Shown: piece after piece, positions 6,371 to 26,441 of the stretch
Position numbering within the stretch: position 1 is the first letter of the stretch
Layout: every line of letters starts with the position of its first letter
NCBI GenBank assembly: GCA_025350665.1
Contig: JANXXJ010000020.1
Location: forward strand, 1-32,170
Length of the DNA: 32,170 bases
Direction of reading: 5' to 3'
Origin: Gemmatimonadota bacterium
GTDB taxonomy: Bacteria; Gemmatimonadota; Gemmatimonadetes; Gemmatimonadales; GWC2-71-9
The notes under the pieces: model-generated
What the model saw: the letters and a program-made list of their open reading frames with translations, nothing else
Databases searched by the model: none
Told to the model about the DNA's origin: nothing
Made by a program: the position numbers and the translations under genes

Positions 6371-9300
6371 GGCTGGCTGCTGCTCCTGGTGGCGGGCGAG
6401 TCGCTCCTGGCGGAGTGGATCCGGCTCCCTCGGGCGGCGATCGCGGTCGGGGCCGTGCTCTGCTGGGGGCTGGGCGCGTTGCCGTTGGTGCGGCGCGGCG
6501 GTGCCGGTACCCTACTCGCGGGAATCCTCCTTGCCAAGGCGTTGCTGCTGGGCTGGTCGCACGTCCGGATCGACCGGATCGAACGCGACTGGCCCGGGGT
6601 GCGCGAGCAGCTGGTGACCGATGCCGCAGACCAATGGCTACGGGATCTCCGCTCATCCCGGGCGCTGGTCGAGCGGGTGGCGACCAGCGCCGTCGGGCTC
6701 GACCGGCAGGGGCGCGAGATTGTCTTCGACCGGCTGGGCCGTCAGGTGGCGCGGGAGGGCCTCGAAGTCGGCGTGGCTGTACTCGACGCCGACGGGACGC
6801 CGTACGCCTGGGCGGGCCGGCACCGGCTGGCGCCGGACGCCGCCGGTGACTCGATCGACTTCAGGGCTTCGCCGTACTACGCCGTGCTCGAGGCCCGACG
6901 GCACCTGGGACAGGGCCGGACGGCCATCGCGACGCTGCTGCTGGCCGCCGACTCGACGGTGCCGGACCAGGCGCGGAGCCTGGCCCGGCGATTCGAACGG
7001 CGGACCGGGGTGGCGGTCGACGTGTTGCCGCGAGGTGTTGCGCCGGACAGCTCCGACGTTTTCGATTATCTCGAGCCGTCGGCCGACGGCTCGTCGCGGC
7101 TGTTGTTCAGCGTCCGGCTGGAGCCGCCGACCCAGAGTGCGGCTCACGAGCGGGCCTACCGGGCGGCTGTGCTGCGACTCGTTGTCCTTGGCGTGGCGGC
7201 GCTGGTGTTGACGCTGGGTCTCGCGCCCGCCGGCGGGCTCCGGTTCGTGATCGCGGCGGTTCCGGTGTGGGTCTCGGTGCGGGCGCCGTTAGGCGACGCC
7301 TTGTCCCTTCCGGCCCTGTTTTCGCCGCGGACGTTCAACCATCCGCTGCTGGGTCCGGTGTCGGAAACGGCGGGGCCTCTGATGCTGGCCGCCGCGTTTC
7401 TGGTGATGGTGGCGGCGGCGGCGCTGCGGCGGCGACGGGGGGCCGGCCGTTGGGGCATTCCCTTCGCGCTGGTCCTCCTCTTCGCCGCGCCGTACCTGGT
7501 GAGCCAGCTGGGCCGGGGCATTCAGGTGCCGCCCGGGGGCGCCCCGGCGGGGCTCTGGTTCACCTGGCAGGCGACCGTCTTCCTGGTCGCGGCCTCGATC
7601 GTTCTGGTGGCGGCCGCGCTGGTGCCGAACAGTTCGAACCGGATCTGGCCCGCGGCGGCGGGAGCCACCGGCGCCGTCGGCGTCGCGGTGGTCGGCCTGG
7701 TGGTGTGGAATGCCCGGTCCGGCTGGCCGGACTGGTATCCATTTCTCTGGGCGGCAGCGATCGGACTGGTGATCTGGCCGGGGCGGCGGGCCGCCCGGCT
7801 GGCCGGGATCGGGGTTGCCGTCGGCGCCGCGGCGGCACTGATGGTCTGGGGGGCGGAGGTCGAGGGCCGGATCACCGCCGCCCGGGCCGACTTGAGCTCG
7901 TTAGGCATTCGGGCCGATCCGATCGCGATCCCGCTGCTCGAAGCCTTCGCCGAGCGGGTCGGGGCGGGCGCGCCGCCCCGAAGCGCCTCGGAGCTCTTTG
8001 CCGTCTGGCGTTCCTCACCGCTCTCGCGCCAGGCGTTTCCAGCCGCCCTCGGGCTGTGGTCGGCGGAAGGCGACAGCCGGGCCCAGTTGCGACTCGATGA
8101 AGTGGATCTGCCGGATTCGCTGGTCGCACGGGCCGTGCGTGAACTCCGGCCGGACCTCGCGCGAGCCATCCTGCCGTTCCAGCGGAACCCGGCCGTTCAC
8201 TACCTCGCTCTGATCCGGGTCGATGCCTCGACAGTGCTGTCCGTCGGCCTCGGACCGAGGACCAGTCTGGTGCGGCAAGCCCGGCTCGGCCGCTTGCTCG
8301 ATCCTGAGCCCTCCATTGCGCCGTTGTATCTCCTGACGCTCGCCCCGACCGGGTCGCTCGACCAGCCGGATCCGGATGTCCCGCTCTGGTCCCGGGAGGG
8401 GTGGACGGCGCGGGGACGCCGAACGGTGGCGATGGGCGACGGCGCCCGGGACGTGAATGGTGTCGTCGACCTGGGGTTGCCCCAGAGTCTGCTGGTGCGC
8501 GGCAGCCTTCTGGTGGTCCTCGACCTGCTGCTTCTCTTTACGCTGGCCGGGCTGGCCAGTTGGCTCGCGACCGCCCGGGTCGAGCGGCCGTTGTGGTGGC
8601 CGGAATGGCGGGCCTTCCGGACCAGGATCACGATGGCGCTCGGCGGCTTCTTCCTGGTTCCGGCGGCCGCATTCGCGCTGATCAACATCGTGGAACTCGC
8701 CAACGAAGGCCGGAGCCGGCGCGATCTGATGATTGCCCAGACACTGCGCGACGCGTCGCCGGGCGCCACGCTACCCGTCGGCAGCGGGTTCGAGCTCGAC
8801 CGGGCTCTCGAGACGCTGAGCGAGCGGGTCGACGCCAATCTGGTGCTGTTCAAGGATGGCCGACTGATCGGCTCGAATGGCGGCGGCGTGTTCGAGGATT
8901 TCGGTGTCGTCGACCCACTGGTTGACCCCGCCGTGTTTCATCAGGTTGAGCTCGAGGGCGAGCCGACCGCGATGACCGATGGTCCGAGTTCGAGTCTGCC
9001 GGCCCGGCTCGGAGTGCGGTCGGTCCGGCTCCCGACCGGGGACGGGGCCATGCTCGGCTCGCCCCAGGCCGTGAGTGATCCCGGGATCGGAGCTCAGCAG
9101 CGGGATCTGGCCTACGGGCTCGCGTTGGCCGTGGTGATGGGCCTGGTGGCTGCGGTCGTGGCGGCGCGGGTGTCGGCCCGGGCGCTCTCCCGGCCGGCCG
9201 CAGATCTCCGCGACGCGGCTCTGGCCTTCGGCCGAGGGGAACCGCTCCCGTCGCAGGCCGGGGCCGCGCCCACGGAGTTTGAGCCGGTGTTCCAGGCACT

Positions 9301-17530: not shown

Positions 17531-18361
17531 CTAATTCTCAACCGCCGTCGTCGCCGCGGCAAGAGCGGCGTCGCGCAGTATCGAGACGAAGTCGACCGCC
17601 GCGGCGGCCGCGTCGTCGCCGGCCCGACGGATGGACTCGATTCGATTGATCAAGGCGGATCCGGTGATCACCCCGCGGGCGCCGAGGCGATGGGCGGTGC
17701 GAACGTGGTCGGGTCCCGAAATTCCGAAGCCCAGCACCGGTGGGGGAGCGTGGAGGGCCCGGAGATCGGCAATCGTGGCACCGAGCACGGCGGCATCGGG
17801 GTCGGCGGCGCCCGTGACGCCGGCCCGGCTCGTGACATAGGTGTAGCCGCGGGTTGCCCGGGCGATCTGTTCGAGGCGCGCGCTCGTGGCGTTCGGCGGC
17901 GCAATCATGACCGGGGCGATGCCATGCCGGCCGGCCTCGGCATGGAAGGGTTCCGCTTCGCCGAGCGGAAGGTCGGCGATCAGCACGGAATCGGCGCCGG
18001 CGGCCGCGGCCCGCTGGTAGAAGTGCGGGACGCCTCGGTGGACCACGAGATTGGCGTACACGAGGAGGCCGATCGGGAGGGCGGGGGCTCGTTGCCGGAG
18101 ACGTTCGACCAGATCCCAGCAGTCATCGGCCGTGGTGCCGGCCGCGAGGGCGCGCCAGCCCGCCGCTTGAACTACGGGACCATCGGCAACTGGATCGGAG
18201 AATGGAAACCCGAGTTCGATCGCATCGATCCCGGCGTCGGCGAGCGCGTCGAGGATGCGGGCCGAGGTATCCAGATCGGGATCGCCCAGAACGAGGAATG
18301 GGATGACGGCGACCTGGGACGCCGCCGGGCCGCCGAACAGGGTGGCGTAGCGGGTGCTCAT
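17531..18361 (-). CDS. trpA: Tryptophan synthase alpha subunit
   Basis: [48 protein letters not shown]. Confidence 0.97.
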
Positions 18362-19530
18362 CGGGCCTTCTCCTCAATCCAGCGCCCGACCGTGGCGAGA
18401 TCCTTGTCGCCGCGGCCGGACAGGTTCACGACGATCCGCCGGAATTCGCCGGCGGCCGCGAGCCGGCGGGCGACCGCGAGCGCGTGGGCACTCTCAAGCG
18501 CCGGGAGAATGCCCTCGGTGCTGGCAAGGTCCTGATACGCCTGGACGGCATCGTGATCGTCGCAGGCCAGATAGCGGGCGCGGCCCGTCTCGGCCAGATG
18601 GGCGTGTTCCGGCCCGACGCCTGGATAGTCGAGGCCGGCCGACACCGAATGCGATTCCCGGATCTGTCCATCGTCGTCCTGGAGGACCTGGGTGAAGGCT
18701 CCGTGCAGGACGCCGGGCCGGCCCCGGAGGATCGTGGCGCCATGAGCGTTCGATTCGAGGCCCTGGCCACCGGGCTCGACCCCGATGAGGACGACGGGAT
18801 CATCGAGGAACGCGGTGAAGATCCCGATGGCGTTCGAGCCGCCGCCCACCGCGGCGACGACCGCGTCGGGCTGGCCCCCGGCCTGCTCCGCGAACTGGGC
18901 CCGAGCCTCGTCGCCGATGACCCGCTGGAATTCCCGGACTATGGTGGGGAATGGATGGGGGCCGGCGACGGTCCCGAGCAGATAGTGGGTGTCAGCAAAG
19001 GACGCCGACCAGTCGCGGAGGGCTTCGTTGATCGCGTCCTTGAGGGTGGCCCCACCGGACGTCACCGCCACCACGGTCGCCCCGAAGAGCCGCATCCGGT
19101 CCACGTTCGGGCGCTGGCGGGCCATGTCGGTGGCGCCCATGTAGATCACGGTCTCGATGCCTAACGCCGCTCCGGTGAACGCGGTGGCGACCCCGTGCTG
19201 GCCCGCCCCGGTTTCGGCGATCAGCCGGCGTTTGCCGAGGCGACGGGCCAGGAGCCCCTGGCCCAGTGCCTGGTTGGTCTTGTGGGCGCCGCCGTGCAGG
19301 AGATCTTCGCGCTTGAGCCAGATCTCGGTACCGTCGCCGCCGAACCGGCGGCACCGGTAGAGCGGCGTCGGGCGGCCCGCGAAGTGGCGCAGCCACCCGG
19401 CCAGGTCAGCCTTGAACTCGGGGTCGGCGAGCGCCGCGACGAACGCCGCCTCGAGTTCTTCGAGGGCGGGGGCCAGGATCTCAGGCACGAAGTAGCCGCC
19501 GAAGCGGCCAAATCGGGTCGGGAGTTTCAT
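18358..19530 (-). CDS. trpB: Tryptophan synthase beta subunit
   Basis: [64 protein letters not shown]. Start at 19530. Confidence 0.98.
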
Positions 19531-20888
19531 GCCCGCCGCCGACCTGCCCGGGCCCGACGGGCCGCCAGGAAGCGGTGGATACGGGACCGGTCCTTCAGGC
19601 CGGGCGACGTCTCGACGCCGGAACTCACGTCGAAGAAGTCGATGCCGACCTCGGGGACGGCACCCACGTTGTCCGGATGCAGTCCGCCGCCGACGATGCA
19701 GGCCTCGGGTCGGTCGATCCCGCCAAGAAGCGCCCAGTCGAACGCCCGCCCGTCGCCGCCACGCTGGCCATCCAGCAGCCACCGATCGGCCGGGCCGACC
19801 AGGGGCGGTATCGCTCTGTCGACCGGGACTGCCCGCCACAGCGCCACGCGTTCGGGCAGCCGGCGCCGCGTCTCCTCTAGGTCGTGGTCGGATTCCCCGC
19901 CGTGGAGCTGGACCGTATCGAGCTCGAGATGTTCCGCCAACGTGGCGACTTCATCGGGCCGGTGTCCGGCGAAGACGCCCACCCACTGGAGATCGGCCGC
20001 CTGCCGGATCCGCTTTGCCCGGGCCGGGTCGAGCCGACGGGGTGATGGCGCGAACACGAGGCCGCCATGGGTGGCGCCGGCCGCCGCCGCTGCCTCGGCG
20101 TCCTCGGGCCGGGTGAGGCCGCAGACCTTGGTCAGGCCGTAGATCAGCTCGCGGGCAAACGGGTCGGGGTCGGCCCGGGACATGAGCGCACTCCCGATCA
20201 GGAACCCGTCGACCTGGCCGGCGAGCCGGCGGACGTCGGCCCTGCCGGTGATGCCGGACTCGGCGATCACGAGTGCATCGGGCGGTGCCTGGGCCGCCAG
20301 CACGGCCACGCCCGCGAGATCGACCGTGAACGTGCGGAGGTTCCGGCTGTTGACGCCGATCAATCGGGCGCCGAGGGAGGCGGCCCGCGCCATCTCCCCG
20401 GGGTCGTGCACTTCCGTCAACACGCTCATTCGGAGGGCGCGGGCCTGGTCGGCGCAGGCCCGGTAGGTCTGGTCGTCGACGGCCGCGAGGATGAGGAGGA
20501 CGGCGTCGGCGCCGGCGGCACGGAGATCGCGAACCTGCCCGGGGTCAACGATGAAATCCTTGGCCAAAATCGGCTGGGGACACTCGGAGCGAATCCGGGT
20601 GAGCAGGCCCGGCGATCCGCCGAAGAACGTCGAGTCGGTGAGCACGCTGACCGCATCGGCGCGGCGCCGGTAACAGTCGATCACCGGTCCGAGGTCCGCG
20701 GCGTCACGAATCCGGCCCGCCGATGGCGATCTCGGTTTCACCTCGAGGATGAACGCCGGCCGGGCCGTCCGGAGCGCCGCCTCGAAATCGCGATCCGAAG
20801 GCACGAGGGCCGGTTCCGCCGTTCGGTAACCGGCGGTTCGAAGCCGGACCTCCTCGCGTTTGCGAACCAGGATGGCGCTGAGCGTCAT
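19527..20888 (-). CDS. trpCF: Bifunctional indole-3-glycerol-phosphate synthase / phosphoribosylanthranilate isomerase (TrpC-TrpF fusion)
   Basis: [102 protein letters not shown]. Single frame from ATG 20888. Confidence 0.96.
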
Positions 20889-21892
20889 GCTGCCTCCTTG
20901 AGCAGGAGCTCGAGACGCTCGGCCCCGGCCCCCGCGATGATGATGCCGAAGGCGAGTTGAGCCCCGGCGGCGAGCGAGTCGGCGACGCCGGCAACCCAGA
21001 ACAAGGCTCCGGCGTTGAGCGCGACCGAGTTGGTGTGGGCCGGTGGTGCCCGGCCCTCGAGAACCTGCCGGAGCCACACGGCGCTCTCGCCCGGACCGCC
21101 CCCGGCCAGTTCGGAGACAGGGGCGCGCGGCAGCCGGGCGTCCTCCGGCGTCAGGATCAGGTCGGTGATCCGGCCGTCTCGGACGAGCGCCGCCGTGGTC
21201 GGGCCGTGCAGGGCGATCTCATCGAGCCCGCTGCCATGGACGACGAGCGCCGCGGTCACGCCAAGGCGCTGGAGGGTCTGGGCGATCGGACGAACCAGGT
21301 GGGGGGCATAGACCCCCATCACCTGCCAAGCCGGCCGAACCGGATTGACCAGCGGGCCGAGCAGATTCATGACCGTGCGGGTGCGGAGGGTCCGGCGGAC
21401 GGTGGCGGCCTTCCGGATGCCGGGGTGATAGGCCGGGGCGAAGAGGAAGCAGACCCCGGCCCGGTCCAGGGCCCGGCGGGTCGTGTCGGGAGAGGCCTCG
21501 AGATCGAGCCCCAGGGCCTCGAGTACGTCAGCCGATCCGGTGCGCGACGAGGTGGCCCGGTTGCCGTGCTTGGCGACCGGTACTCCACCCGCGGCGGCCA
21601 CGAACGCGGCCGCCGTCGACACATTGACGGTGCCGAGTCCGTCACCGCCGGTGCCGCAGGTGTCGGCGACGGAGTAGGCCGGCTGAGGGAACGGCCGGGC
21701 CTGGGCCAGGATCGCGAGGGCGGCACCGGTGATTTCGTCGGCCGTTTCACCGCGGGTCTTCATCGCGGCGAGGAGGGCGGCAATTTCGATGTCGGACATC
21801 GCGCCGTCCAGAATGTCGGTAAAGGTGCGGTAGCTCTCCCGCTCGGTCAGGCTCCGGTGCGACAGGGTGTCGAGGAATTCAGTGAGCGGCAT
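20885..21892 (-). CDS. trpD: Anthranilate phosphoribosyltransferase
   Basis: DTCGTGGDGLGTVNVSTAAAFVAAAGGVPVAKHGNRATSSRTGSADVLEALG. Confidence 0.98.
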   Translation of the reverse strand: MPLTEFLDTLSHRSLTERESYRTFTDILDGAMSDIEIAALLAAMKTRGETADEITGAALAILAQARPFPQPAYSVADTCGTGGDGLGTVNVSTAAAFVAAAGGVPVAKHGNRATSSRTGSADVLEALGLDLEASPDTTRRALDRAGVCFLFAPAYHPGIRKAATVRRTLRTRTVMNLLGPLVNPVRPAWQVMGVYAPHLVRPIAQTLQRLGVTAALVVHGSGLDEIALHGPTTAALVRDGRITDLILTPEDARLPRAPVSELAGGGPGESAVWLRQVLEGRAPPAHTNSVALNAGALFWVAGVADSLAAGAQLAFGIIIAGAGAERLELLLKEAA

Positions 21893-22475
21893 GGGAGGCC
21901 CAGAGCATCACATGGTCGATCAGGCGGCCGCCGTGCGGCGTCAGGACGGATTCGGGGTGGAACTGGACGCCGATGGCCGGCTGGTCCCGATGACGGACCG
22001 CCATGACGACGCCCTCCGACTCGGCGATCGCTTCGAGCGGCGCCGGAAGTTCGGCGGCGGCCAGCGAGTGATAGCGACCCACGGGCATGGGGTCGGGCAG
22101 GCCGGCGAAGATGCCCAGGCCGCCGTGGCGGAGCAGCGTGGCCCGGCCGTGGAGCGGGACCGGGCTGCACCGGACCACGCCGCCTAACGCGACGACCAGG
22201 GCCTGATGGCCGAGACACACGCCGAAAATCGGGACTCGGCCGAGCCCGCCGGATATCGCGGCGATGCTGGAACCCGCTGAGGCGGGATCCCCAGGGCCGG
22301 GGGAAATCACCAGGAGCCCGGCGCCCGGCCGGGTGGCATGAGCGAGGATGTCGGCGGCCGGCCGGTCGTTCCGGAAGACCGTGACGTCGGCACCGCGCCG
22401 GGCGAATTCATCGACCAGGTTGAAGGTGAAGGAGTCGATGTTGTCGAGCAGGGTGACGCGGAGCGGCTCAGACAT
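21879..22475 (-). CDS. trpG: Anthranilate synthase component II (glutamine amidotransferase)
   Basis: LLDNIDSFTFNLV; ISPGPGDP; FGVCLGHQALVVALGG; GVQFHPESV. Confidence 0.97.
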   Translation of the reverse strand: MSEPLRVTLLDNIDSFTFNLVDEFARRGADVTVFRNDRPAADILAHATRPGAGLLVISPGPGDPASAGSSIAAISGGLGRVPIFGVCLGHQALVVALGGVVRCSPVPLHGRATLLRHGGLGIFAGLPDPMPVGRYHSLAAAELPAPLEAIAESEGVVMAVRHRDQPAIGVQFHPESVLTPHGGRLIDHVMLWASHAAH

Positions 22476-24048
22476 GGATCAGCGCCTGTTCGGAGGAACG
22501 AATCGCTTCGAGTACCGCCCGGACCTTGGCCCGGGTCTCGGCCGCCTCGGCGTCGGGGTCTGAGTCGAGCACGACACCGGCCCCGGCGCGCACCGTAGCC
22601 ACGCCGTTCCGGACGACGGCCGACCGAATCACGATCGCCGTCTCCAGCGTGCCGTCGTGCCGGAGGTACCCGACCGCCCCGCCGTACCAGCCTCGGCGGC
22701 TCGGCTCATACTCCCGGAGCAGTTCCGCAGCCCGGACCTTGGGCGCGCCGACGAGCGTGCCCATGGGCAGGGTCGCCGCGAGGGCTTCCAGCGCGTCGAT
22801 CCCCGGGGCCAAGGTGCCGCAGACTTCGGACACCAGGTGCATCACGTGGCGATAGCGCTCGACGTCGAGCAGACGGGTCACGGTGCGGGTTCCCGGGGCT
22901 GCCACCCGGGCGACGTCGTTTCGTGCCAGATCGACCAGCATCAGGTGCTCGGCGGATTCCTTGGGATCGTTCCGGAGAGCCACTTCGTGCCGGCGGTCGA
23001 GGTCACTGTCGATCTCGCCTGCGGGGTTCCGGCCCCGGGCCGCCGTTCCCGCGATCGGTACGACCGAGACGCGGCGACTCGGGCCCTCAACTCGGAGACA
23101 GGTTTCGGGCGAGGCGCCGAGGAGCGTGCGCTCTGCCCCCGCGAGGTAGAACAGGTACGGACTGGGGTTCGCCCGGCGGAGCGCGGCGTAGGCGTCGAGC
23201 GGCGAACCGCACGGTGTCCGGAACGTCCGGGACGGTACGATCTGATAGACGTCACCGCTTCGGACGTGGGCCTTGAGACGGCGGACCGTCTCGGCGTACG
23301 CGGCATCGGACTGGTCCGCGGGATCGGGGTCGTCGAGTCGGGGCAGCGCCAGGTCCGGCTGCGGCTCGGTGGAGCCCGTCGCCACGATCGCTGCTTCGAC
23401 GGATGCGAGCAGACGGTGGCCGTCGTGGAACCGGGCGTCGAAGCCGGGGCCGCCCCACGCCGTGGTCACGATCGTCGTGGTTCGGCCGGCGTGATCGATC
23501 ACGACCAGGATGTCGGGCAACCACCATTCGAGCAGCGGCTGGTCAAGGGGGTCGGGCCTCCCGGGGGGAAGGCGCTCGAAGTACTCGATGGCGTCGTAGG
23601 CGATCACGCCGGCCAGCACATGACACCACGGGTTCGGCTCCGCCACGACGCCGGGCTCGAACGCCAGAGCCCGGAGCAGGTCGAGTCCGGATGGCTGGCG
23701 GAACCGGTGCGCCTCGTGGTCGATCGCCCCCCGGCGAATCGGCACGATCGCCCGCCGCGCCACCACCGTGATGGCTCTGGTGGCGGCAAGCCAGGCCAGA
23801 ATGGCATCGCCGTTAGGCGACAGGGCGTCGAGGGTCACGGTTGTCGGTCCGGCCCGGAGCCTGAGGGCCGCGCGGACGCCGAGCAGGCTCCGTTCGCCGC
23901 CGGCTCCCCCGCGATCCGCGGACTCGAGGAGAAACGTGTCGGCCCGGCCCGCGGTCAGGTCCCGATAGAGGGTGAGTGGGTCGGCCGCACCCGCGAGCCG
24001 GCGGACCAGGGGCGTTACGGTCCCGAGAGGGGGCGGCAGCGCGGTCAC
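22468..24048 (-). CDS. trpE: Anthranilate synthase component I
   Basis: VRSGDVYQIVPSRTF; SPETCLRVEG; PIAGTAARGRNP; MLVDLARNDVARV; GTLVGAPKVRAAELL; LLES-X10-S motif. Confidence 0.97.
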   Translation of the reverse strand: MTALPPPLGTVTPLVRRLAGAADPLTLYRDLTAGRADTFLLESADRGGAGGERSLLGVRAALRLRAGPTTVTLDALSPNGDAILAWLAATRAITVVARRAIVPIRRGAIDHEAHRFRQPSGLDLLRALAFEPGVVAEPNPWCHVLAGVIAYDAIEYFERLPPGRPDPLDQPLLEWWLPDILVVIDHAGRTTTIVTTAWGGPGFDARFHDGHRLLASVEAAIVATGSTEPQPDLALPRLDDPDPADQSDAAYAETVRRLKAHVRSGDVYQIVPSRTFRTPCGSPLDAYAALRRANPSPYLFYLAGAERTLLGASPETCLRVEGPSRRVSVVPIAGTAARGRNPAGEIDSDLDRRHEVALRNDPKESAEHLMLVDLARNDVARVAAPGTRTVTRLLDVERYRHVMHLVSEVCGTLAPGIDALEALAATLPMGTLVGAPKVRAAELLREYEPSRRGWYGGAVGYLRHDGTLETAIVIRSAVVRNGVATVRAGAGVVLDSDPDAEAAETRAKVRAVLEAIRSSEQALIHV

Positions 24049-25058
24049 AGGGCCCGCCCCGCCGCGCGGGCGAACGGTTCGAGATCGCGCATTAGCGCCG
24101 CGAACTCGAGATGGTCGAGCGTCTGCTGGCCGTCCGACCAGGCGAGTCTGGGGTCTTGATGGACCTCGATCAACAGGCCGTCGGCGCCGCAGGCCACGGC
24201 GGCCTTCGCCATGGGCGCCACGTAGTCACGGACGCCGGTTCCATGGGACGGATCGACCAGCACCGGCAGGTGACTGCGGGCCTTGATGGCGGGCACGGCG
24301 GTGAGGTCCAGGACGTTGCGGGTCGCGGAATCGAAACCCTGGATTCCCCGTTCGCAGAGAATCACGTTGGGGTTGCCCTCCGCGAGGATGTACTCCGCCG
24401 CCAGCAGGAGATCCTCGATTCTGGCGGCCATGCCTCGTTTCAGCACGACCGGTTTCCGGCTCCGGCCGATCGCCTGCAGGAGCCGGAAGTTCTGCATGTT
24501 GCGGGCGCCGACCTGGAATCCGTCGGCATAGCGATCCACCAGTTCGACATCGGCGGGATCGAGGACTTCGGTCAGGGTCGGCAGGCCGACCTCGTCCGAT
24601 ACCGCCTTGAGGATCTCGAGGCCCTCTCGTCCCAGCCCCTGAAAGGCGTACGGACTGGTCCTGGGCTTGAAGGCCCCGCCGCGGAGGATCCTCCCGCCGG
24701 CTGCCGCCACCGCCCGGGCCGTGGTTGTGAGCTGGCCGGCGCTTTCGACCGAGCAGGGTCCCCCGATCACGACGATACGGTCACCGCCGATCGCGACTCC
24801 GCCCAACGACACGATGGTATCGGCCGGATGGAGCTCGCGGGCCACCAGCTTGTAGGGCGCCAGGATCGGCTTGACGCTTTCGACCAGCGGGTGGCTCTCG
24901 AGGTGAAGGCGCTCGAGAATGCGCTCGTCGCCGAGAGCGCCGAGCACGACGCGTTCGGCGCCAGGCATGTGGAGCGGTTTGAGGCCGACGGCCGCGATGT
25001 CGCGGACGAGTTCTTCCGCGTGCGCCGCGGTGGCGTGCGGTTTGAGGACGATGATCAT
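24045..25058 (-). CDS. aroF: 3-deoxy-7-phosphoheptulonate (DAHP) synthase with N-terminal ferredoxin-like domain
   Basis: MIIVLKPHATAAHAEELVRDIAAVGLKPL; VVIGGPCSVES; LRGGAFKPRTSPYAFQGLG; PVVLKRGMAA; CERGIQGFD; VDPSHGTG. Start at 25058 with AAAAGG upstream; the ORF-track start 25118 lies inside the attenuator terminator. Confidence 0.95.
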   Translation of the reverse strand: MIIVLKPHATAAHAEELVRDIAAVGLKPLHMPGAERVVLGALGDERILERLHLESHPLVESVKPILAPYKLVARELHPADTIVSLGGVAIGGDRIVVIGGPCSVESAGQLTTTARAVAAAGGRILRGGAFKPRTSPYAFQGLGREGLEILKAVSDEVGLPTLTEVLDPADVELVDRYADGFQVGARNMQNFRLLQAIGRSRKPVVLKRGMAARIEDLLLAAEYILAEGNPNVILCERGIQGFDSATRNVLDLTAVPAIKARSHLPVLVDPSHGTGVRDYVAPMAKAAVACGADGLLIEVHQDPRLAWSDGQQTLDHLEFAALMRDLEPFARAAGRAL

Positions 25059-25107
25059 GGCCGTGCCTTTTGCTGTCTGGGGAGACCGCACGGCGGGCCA
25101 CGCAACG

Positions 25108-25135
25108 AAAAAGCCCACCGCTTGCGCGGTGGGCT
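25108..25135 (-). terminator. Intrinsic terminator of the trp attenuator (3:4 hairpin)
   Basis: Minus strand AGCCCACCGC-GCAA-GCGGTGGGCT followed by a run of five T (25112..25108): perfect 10-bp stem, GNRA-type tetraloop. Confidence 0.93.
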
Positions 25136-25155
25136 CCGGGGTCAGGATTCGATGA

Positions 25156-25239
25156 CTATCGACTCAGACGCACGCTTTGCCCCACCGCGAAATCGCGCCA
25201 GGGCCACCACCACTGCGTTGAAACGTTGCGTCCGATCAT
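25156..25239 (-). CDS. trpL: trp operon leader peptide MIGRNVSTQWWWPWRDFAVGQSVRLSR
   Basis: Short ORF with four Trp codons in five (TGG TGG TGG CCC TGG), stop TAG at 25158..25156, located between a good promoter and the terminator upstream of aroF-trp. Confidence 0.9.
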   Translation of the reverse strand: MIGRNVSTQWWWPWRDFAVGQSVRLSR

Positions 25240-25246
25240 GGACATC

Positions 25247-25275
25247 AGGATAGGCGTGCGTGGCTGGACCGTCAA
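25247..25275 (-). promoter_or_regulatory. Predicted housekeeping promoter of the trp leader and operon
   Basis: Minus strand TTGACG (25275..25270), 17-nt spacer, TATCCT (25252..25247). Confidence 0.75.
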
Positions 25276-26441
25276 GGCCGGGCGGCCGCGAACGCCGGTT
25301 CGAGAACCGAGAAGAGCCGGTCCACTTCCCACCACTCGTTGTACACATGCGGGGTGATTCGCAGGGTCCGGCCACCGCGGATGCTGATATGCACGCCCTG
25401 CCGGGTGAGCAACCCGGCCAGTCCGGCGGGCAGCGCTCCGGCGGCCTTGAGGCCGAGGTAGTGGCGGGCGCGAAGTTGGGTGGGGACCGCGGCAAGACCG
25501 AGCGGATCGGCCCGGGTGGCGATGGCGTCGGTGAACGCGCCCGCGGTGGCCGCGATGCGGTCGACCCCCCAGTCCAGAATCTGCTCGAGCGCCGCAGTCA
25601 CGCCGGGAAGCAGCGCGAAGTTGGCCGGTTCGCCGACGTCGAACCGCCGGGCGCCGCGTTGAAAACCGTCCGGGTAGCCGAGGTTGCTGAAATCCTGGGC
25701 ACCGGCGCGGCCAAACCAGTGATGTTCGAGCGGCCGGCCGTTCTGGTGCCGCGGGGCGACGTAGAGGAACCCGGTGGAATAGGGGGACAGCAGCCACTTG
25801 TAGGCGGCCACCACCAGGAAGTCGGGGTCGACCTCGGCAAGCGGGAACGGGCGCGCGCCTAACGATTGGGTCAGGTCGAGCGCCAGGGCGGCCCCAACCT
25901 GGCGGAGCCGGGCGCCGATCCGGACCAGATCGATGGTGGCCCCGTCGATCCAGTGTACCGCCGGCAGGGCGGCCACCGCGGTCCGGTCGTCGATCGCGGC
26001 CAGGATGGCGGCTGTCCAGTCGTGATCGGCGGGGCGGGGTACGGTGACGAGTTCGGCGCCGCCGGCCCGGGCCCGCTCCCGCCAGGTCAGAATGGTCGAT
26101 GGGAACTCCTCGGCCAACACGAGGATCGTCTGCCCAGGCCGGACCGTCAGATTGGCCGACGCCACCGCCATGCCATACGAGGCCGCCGGTACCAGCGCGA
26201 TGTCCTCGGCCGTTGCCGGGGCGCCGAGGAGCGTGGCGAAGGCGGCGCGGGCCTGGTCGGCCAAGCTGAAGAAATCGGCCGGGAACACGGCCCAGGGATG
26301 GCGCTTGCGGTCGACTCCCCCATGGGTCGCTTCTGCGACGGCGTTCGACAGCGGGCCCATGTAGGCGCAGTTCAGGTAGGCGACGTGACCGGGCAGGTCA
26401 AACAGGTGGCGCTGCGAGGGGAGGATGGGCATGCCCACCAT
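25272..26441 (-). CDS. Aminotransferase class V-fold PLP-dependent enzyme
   Basis: HVAYLNCAYMGPLSNAV; ALALDLTQSLGARPFPL; DFLVVAAYKWLLSPYSTGFLYV (PLP-lysine region). Confidence 0.9.
   Translation of the reverse strand: MVGMPILPSQRHLFDLPGHVAYLNCAYMGPLSNAVAEATHGGVDRKRHPWAVFPADFFSLADQARAAFATLLGAPATAEDIALVPAASYGMAVASANLTVRPGQTILVLAEEFPSTILTWRERARAGGAELVTVPRPADHDWTAAILAAIDDRTAVAALPAVHWIDGATIDLVRIGARLRQVGAALALDLTQSLGARPFPLAEVDPDFLVVAAYKWLLSPYSTGFLYVAPRHQNGRPLEHHWFGRAGAQDFSNLGYPDGFQRGARRFDVGEPANFALLPGVTAALEQILDWGVDRIAATAGAFTDAIATRADPLGLAAVPTQLRARHYLGLKAAGALPAGLAGLLTRQGVHISIRGGRTLRITPHVYNEWWEVDRLFSVLEPAFAAARP

What the first reader, a model, noticed from the sequence alone, without database searches (positions are those of the whole stretch)
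25237..25275. The trp leader peptide is probably translated from a leaderless transcript
TTGACG-N17-TATCCT places the expected start of transcription about 7-8 nt past the -10, at 25240-25239, which is the A of ATG 25239. The alternative in-frame ATG at 25245 is only 2 nt from the -10, and there is no Shine-Dalgarno upstream. Established parallel: Sinorhizobium meliloti trpL is leaderless and its attenuator RNA also acts in trans. Inference: the released ~130-nt RNA and peptide here could have trans functions.
Basis: partly seen in the sequence, partly recalled or inferred. Interest (0 to 1): 0.7.

Follow-up and report, generated by a model that had tools for sequence, protein, structure and literature searches.

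The report
Leaderless tryptophan attenuator in Gemmatimonadales
In a bacterium of the order Gemmatimonadales, the tiny sensor gene that switches the tryptophan operon on and off almost certainly begins at the very first bases of its RNA, with no ribosome-binding site, and the same layout recurs in every related tryptophan and histidine switch that I could read.

Summary
On the minus strand, TTGACG (25275-25270)-N17-TATCCT (25252-25247) is the only sigma70-like site in 24900-25500. It puts the expected transcription start at 25240/25239, on the A of ATG 25239, which opens a 27-codon peptide with WWWPW. No Shine-Dalgarno lies upstream. A classical Trp attenuator follows, then aroF-trpE-G-D-C(F)-B-A.

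I tested the leaderless claim by comparison. The window belongs to Gemmatimonadales. In 9 trp and 27 hisG leaders from its relatives, the -10 box ends 5-10 nt before the leader start codon in 34 of 36 by script; the other two fit by eye (7 and 6 nt) if a non-T last base is allowed. Shuffled upstream sequences give about 0.6 of 9 and 2 of 27. Two same-genus genomes show a TANNNT-N6-ATG peak over coding starts (p 4.5e-13, 1.7e-6); in the window's own genome it is weak (p 0.03).

So a 5'UTR of zero to a few nucleotides is well supported, although no RNA 5' end has been mapped. The trans-function idea is unsupported: pairing with trp gene starts does not stand out, and there is no second trpE. Leaderless attenuators are a known kind (Sinorhizobium trpL, Corynebacterium ilvB leader); the phylum and the consistency across trp and his appear new.

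The parts
25270..25275 (-). -35 hexamer TTGACG; its TGA (25274-25272) is also the stop codon of the upstream class-V aminotransferase-like gene
   Evidence: TTGAC(N) is kept at 35-38 nt before the ATG in 8 of 8 Gemmatimonadales trp leaders
25247..25252 (-). -10 hexamer TATCCT, 17-nt spacer
25239..25240 (-). predicted transcription start (A 25239 preferred, 8th base after the -10; C 25240 is the 7th)
   Evidence: position rule for sigma70 promoters plus conserved spacing in relatives; not mapped experimentally
25156..25239 (-). trp leader ORF MIGRNVSTQWWWPWRDFAVGQSVRLSR, ATG 25239 to TAG; first Trp at codon 10, as in G002, G003, G022, G033 and G074
25198..25212 (-). Trp codons TGG TGG TGG CCC TGG (region 1, stalling site)
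25179..25204 (-). 1:2 hairpin (GCCCUG/CGCG against CGCG/UGGGGC)
   Evidence: 87.5% of cells paired across 8 genomes against 39-53% for slid controls
25181..25189 (-). region 2, CGCGGTGGG, pairs with region 3 (25133-25125) as antiterminator
   Evidence: 86% of cells paired against 29-57% slid
25108..25137 (-). intrinsic terminator (regions 3:4) GGAGCCCACCGC-GCAA-GCGGTGGGCTTTTT; released RNA would be 25239-25108, 132 nt
   Evidence: 95% of cells paired across 8 genomes, two pairs with changes on both sides
24045..25058 (-). aroF, DAHP synthase (PRK08673-type), first structural gene
17531..24048 (-). trpE, trpG, trpD, trpC(F), trpB, trpA

Best explanation
A ribosome-dependent Trp attenuator of the classical kind whose leader peptide is translated from a leaderless transcript. 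RNA polymerase starts at or within a few bases of A 25239, so the AUG is at the 5' end. A ribosome begins there (by general knowledge, leaderless mRNAs are started by 70S ribosomes) and follows the polymerase. If charged tRNA-Trp is scarce, it stalls at codons 10-14 (WWWPW), region 2 pairs with region 3, and aroF-trpEGDC(F)BA is transcribed. If tryptophan is plentiful, the ribosome moves on, the 3:4 terminator forms, and a ~132-nt RNA is released. Shown: the sequence elements, their conservation, and the near-fixed -10 to AUG distance. Inferred: the actual +1, the mode of initiation, and the regulatory response.
For: Only promoter in the region, with no Shine-Dalgarno. Nine aroF-linked trp leaders: best promoter 5-10 nt before the start codon in 8 of 9; the ninth (G003) is TTGACT-17-TATCTA-7-ATG read by eye; binomial p 3e-9, shuffles 0.6 of 9. 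Twenty-seven hisG leaders: 26 of 27, p 7e-30, shuffles 2 of 27; the 27th, L295, is TTGACA-17-TAGTTA-6-ATG by eye; two leaders start with GTG at the same spacing. In G007 and G033 an in-frame stop 6 nt upstream forces the start to the predicted ATG. First Trp falls at codon 10-11 in the 8 Gemmatimonadales leaders only if ATG 25239 is the start here (12 with 25245). TANNNT-N6-ATG excess over candidate coding starts: G003 29 against 5.3, p 4.5e-13; G002 12 against 2.1, p 1.7e-6; G079 9 against 2.2, p 4e-4; own genome 6 against 2.3, p 0.03. Attenuator helices kept in 8 genomes.
Against: No RNA data. The leaders are related, so they are not 36 independent trials and the p values are too optimistic. 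In G007, G354 and about a third of the his leaders the spacing is 9-10 nt, which allows a 2-4 nt 5'UTR rather than none. In the window's own fragmented genome the leaderless signal is weak. The antiterminator helix shows no compensatory changes.
Confidence: 0.87

Rival explanations
1. Leadered attenuator: transcription starts well upstream, inside or before the aminotransferase-like gene, and the leader ORF is reached by read-through or by a ribosome finishing the upstream gene (translation coupling).
For: The upstream gene's stop codon lies inside the -35, and the leader frame is open upstream in the window, so read-through from the neighbour is possible. The Ferrimonas relative of this aroF locus does look leadered: its TTGACA lies about 76 nt before the leader ATG.
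Against: The promoter match and its spacing to the ATG are the conserved features; the sequence before it is not. There is no Shine-Dalgarno. The same spacing recurs before hisG, in a different operon.
Confidence: 0.08
2. The leader starts at ATG 25245 (MSMIGR...), from a start site a few bases further upstream.
For: It is in frame and an ATG.
Against: It is 1 nt from the -10, so it would be upstream of +1. It moves the first Trp to codon 12, against 10-11 in the Gemmatimonadales relatives, and none of them has an in-frame ATG there.
Confidence: 0.04
3. The released 132-nt RNA and/or the peptide act in trans, as rnTrpL/peTrpL do in Sinorhizobium. (Additional to, not exclusive of, the best explanation.)
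For: Analogy only (PMC7298713). A short RNA ending at 25108 is expected from the terminator.
Against: The 5' part of the leader is not conserved even within the genus. Pairing with the starts of the trp operon genes does not exceed shuffled leaders, z from -1.1 to +0.7. There is no separate trp operon: one trpE match in the genome. Global targets were not searched.
Confidence: 0.08

Closest known systems
Sinorhizobium meliloti trpL/rnTrpL-peTrpL attenuator (upstream of trpE(G); PMC7298713)
   Same: Trp-codon leader, mutually exclusive antiterminator and terminator, 5' end of the RNA at the ATG, small RNA released
   Different: Different phylum; controls aroF plus the whole trp operon rather than trpE(G) alone; 5' end predicted, not mapped; trans activity shown there, not here
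Corynebacterium diphtheriae ilvB leader (leaderless by mapped start; PMC5784534)
   Same: Amino-acid leader peptide whose start of transcription is its start codon
   Different: Different amino acid and phylum; the start is mapped there, only predicted here
Gammaproteobacterial trp leader; here the Ferrimonas balearica aroF-linked leader (L035)
   Same: Trp codon run, terminator, same type of aroF as first structural gene
   Different: Promoter-like TTGACA lies about 76 nt before the leader ATG, giving a 5'UTR
TA-led (leaderless) genes of Actinobacteria and Deinococcus-Thermus (PMC3160421)
   Same: TANNNT about 12 nt before the start codon
   Different: The main text of that survey does not name Gemmatimonas (0 occurrences)

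Membership tests
Ribosome-dependent Trp transcription attenuator | Short ORF with consecutive Trp codons upstream of trp genes | tested here: met
   WWWPW at codons 10-14; aroF-trpEGDC(F)BA downstream
Ribosome-dependent Trp transcription attenuator | Mutually exclusive 2:3 and 3:4 helices, the latter an intrinsic terminator | tested here: met
   Folds and pair counts on 8 genomes; compensatory changes only in the terminator
Ribosome-dependent Trp transcription attenuator | Expression responds to tryptophan supply through leader translation | not testable with these tools
   needs a reporter or transcript measurement
Leaderless mRNA | -10 element about 6-8 nt before the start codon and no Shine-Dalgarno | tested here: met
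   7 nt here; 5-10 nt in relatives
Leaderless mRNA | Primary 5' end at the start codon (5'UTR 0 to a few nt) | not testable with these tools
   no RNA data available
Trans-acting attenuator RNA (rnTrpL type) | Base-pairing with and regulation of mRNAs elsewhere | tested here: inconclusive
   No excess pairing with trp operon gene starts; genome-wide targets not tested

The most novel reading that the evidence does not exclude
In Gemmatimonadota, amino-acid attenuators as a class (trp and his at least) are built on leaderless leader mRNAs, so the 5' AUG start itself is part of the regulatory design, and leaderless initiation is a regular mode in this little-studied phylum.
Probability: 0.6. Interest if true: 0.5.

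Novelty: new member of a known kind. Interest (0 to 1): 0.4.

Why it matters
Leaderless leader peptides were known to me from single cases in Alphaproteobacteria and Actinobacteria. Here two different attenuators, across several genera and at least three families of another phylum, keep nearly the same -10 to AUG distance. That makes leaderless initiation in Gemmatimonadota predictable from sequence and testable with one dRNA-seq experiment in a culturable species (the his leader of G079, whose length matches Gemmatimonas aurantiaca). It also warns that gene callers will miss such short leaders.

Tried and rejected
Rfam scan of the window gave nothing. A DNA pattern for TGGTGGTGGCCCTGGCG over 395 genomes of the phylum was mostly chance and was dropped in favour of protein-anchored loci. 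A strict TTGAC + TANNNT scan had too few sites to count. Pairing of the leader with trp gene starts was no better than shuffles. A paper search for Gemmatimonas with 'leaderless' returned none in the held library.

Full report
Where the window lies. It is contig C344 of a 4.59-Mb, 366-contig genome. A genome in the same order but another family, G108, matches the Gemmatirosa kalamazoonensis plasmid NZ_CP007130.1 at 100%; that species is Gemmatimonadota, Gemmatimonadales, Gemmatimonadaceae. The window is therefore from a Gemmatimonadales family other than that of Gemmatirosa.

The locus. On the minus strand the genes are aroF (DAHP synthase), trpE, trpG, trpD, fused trpC-F, trpB and trpA. Upstream of aroF lies a leader: promoter, 27-codon ORF with WWWPW, 1:2 hairpin, region 2 complementary to region 3, and a 12-bp terminator with a U run ending at 25108. 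The folding energy of the 132-nt RNA is -65.4 kcal/mol against -49.5 for shuffles (z -4.1).

Checking the claim. TTGACG-N17-TATCCT is the only sigma70-like site in the 600-bp region. Counting bases after the -10, A 25239 is number 8 and the only purine among numbers 5-9; C 25240 is number 7. From general knowledge of sigma70 promoters, starts fall 6-9 bases after the -10 with a preference for purines. ATG 25245 is number 2 and cannot be in the transcript from this promoter.

Comparative test, trp. Close relatives of this aroF (E <= 1e-130) occur in only 9 of 395 genomes of the phylum, and all 9 have a Trp leader upstream. From the first base of TTGAC(N) to the A of the start codon the distance is 36, 36, 36, 35, 38, 36, 36 and 36 nt in G000, G002, G003, G005, G007, G022, G033 and G074 (read). 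A scoring scan puts the best promoter within 5-10 nt of the start in 8 of 9. G003 was scored elsewhere only because the scan demands T as the last base; TTGACT-17-TATCTA-7-ATG fits by eye. G007 and G033 have in-frame stops 6 nt upstream, so their start codon is not in doubt.

Comparative test, his. A scan of the sampled genomes for leader-like ORFs turned up a His-rich leader before hisG in G000 and in G079. HisG loci from relatives gave 27 readable His leaders. In 26 of 27 the best promoter ends 5-10 nt before the start codon (9 at 6, 7 at 7, 7 at 9), against 2 of 27 in shuffles. The 27th (L295) fits as TTGACA-17-TAGTTA-6-ATG by eye. Two start with GTG at the same spacing. The trp and his leaders are different loci with different peptides, so the shared layout is not simply inherited from one leader.

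Genome background. Over candidate ATG starts of called ORFs, TANNNT peaks at exactly 6 nt before the start: G003 29 against 5.3 per position (p 4.5e-13), G002 12 against 2.1 (p 1.7e-6), G079 9 against 2.2 (p 4e-4), G000 6 against 2.3 (p 0.03). Shine-Dalgarno-like enrichment is present too, so both modes seem to be in use. This is the TA-led pattern described for leaderless genes in other phyla (PMC3160421).

Attenuator helices. On the 8-genome alignment the terminator pairs in 95% of cells, the antiterminator in 86% and the 1:2 hairpin in 87.5%, against at most 57% for slid controls. Compensatory changes occur only in the terminator, and the alignment is small, so this supports but does not prove the switch.

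Trans function. The leader before the Trp codons is not conserved. Pairing with the starts of eight minus-strand genes of the window gives z between -1.1 and +0.7. There is one trpE in the genome and the trp genes are together, so the known Sinorhizobium role on a separate trpDC mRNA has no counterpart. I leave trans action as untested outside the operon.

Contrast and history. The Ferrimonas aroF-linked leader has its TTGACA about 76 nt before the leader ATG, a leadered design. The patchy occurrence of this aroF-trpE type in the phylum suggests that the operon has moved between lineages; whether the leader became leaderless after arrival is inference.

Verdict. Leaderless, or nearly so (0-4 nt 5'UTR), at 0.87. 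It is a new member of a known kind, with a phylum-level regularity that I did not find reported in the papers held here.

Noticed in passing
L249, minus strand, leader ATG at 8388; L292-L321: Leaderless-looking His leader peptides (for example MIFRCHHHAHSHHGHG) upstream of hisG across Gemmatimonadales, with a terminator in the two loci read in full; the window's own genome has one on contig C29.
   Followed up: yes
36 leaders: The -10 to start distance is 6, 7, 9 or 10 nt but never 8 in this set; the genome-wide scan of G003 and G002 also has a bump at 9. Unexplained.
   Followed up: no
25272-25275: The stop codon of the upstream class-V aminotransferase-like gene (25272-26441, SufS/kynureninase-related) lies inside the -35 hexamer; a similar arrangement seems readable in some relatives.
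   Followed up: partly
window 17531-25058; aroF-trpE of this type is present in only 9 of 395 phylum genomes, while most relatives have a different trpE (about 45% identity), which suggests horizontal movement of the operon.
   Followed up: partly
L314, L315: Two His leaders begin with GTG placed 6 nt after the -10, that is, leaderless GTG starts.
   Followed up: no
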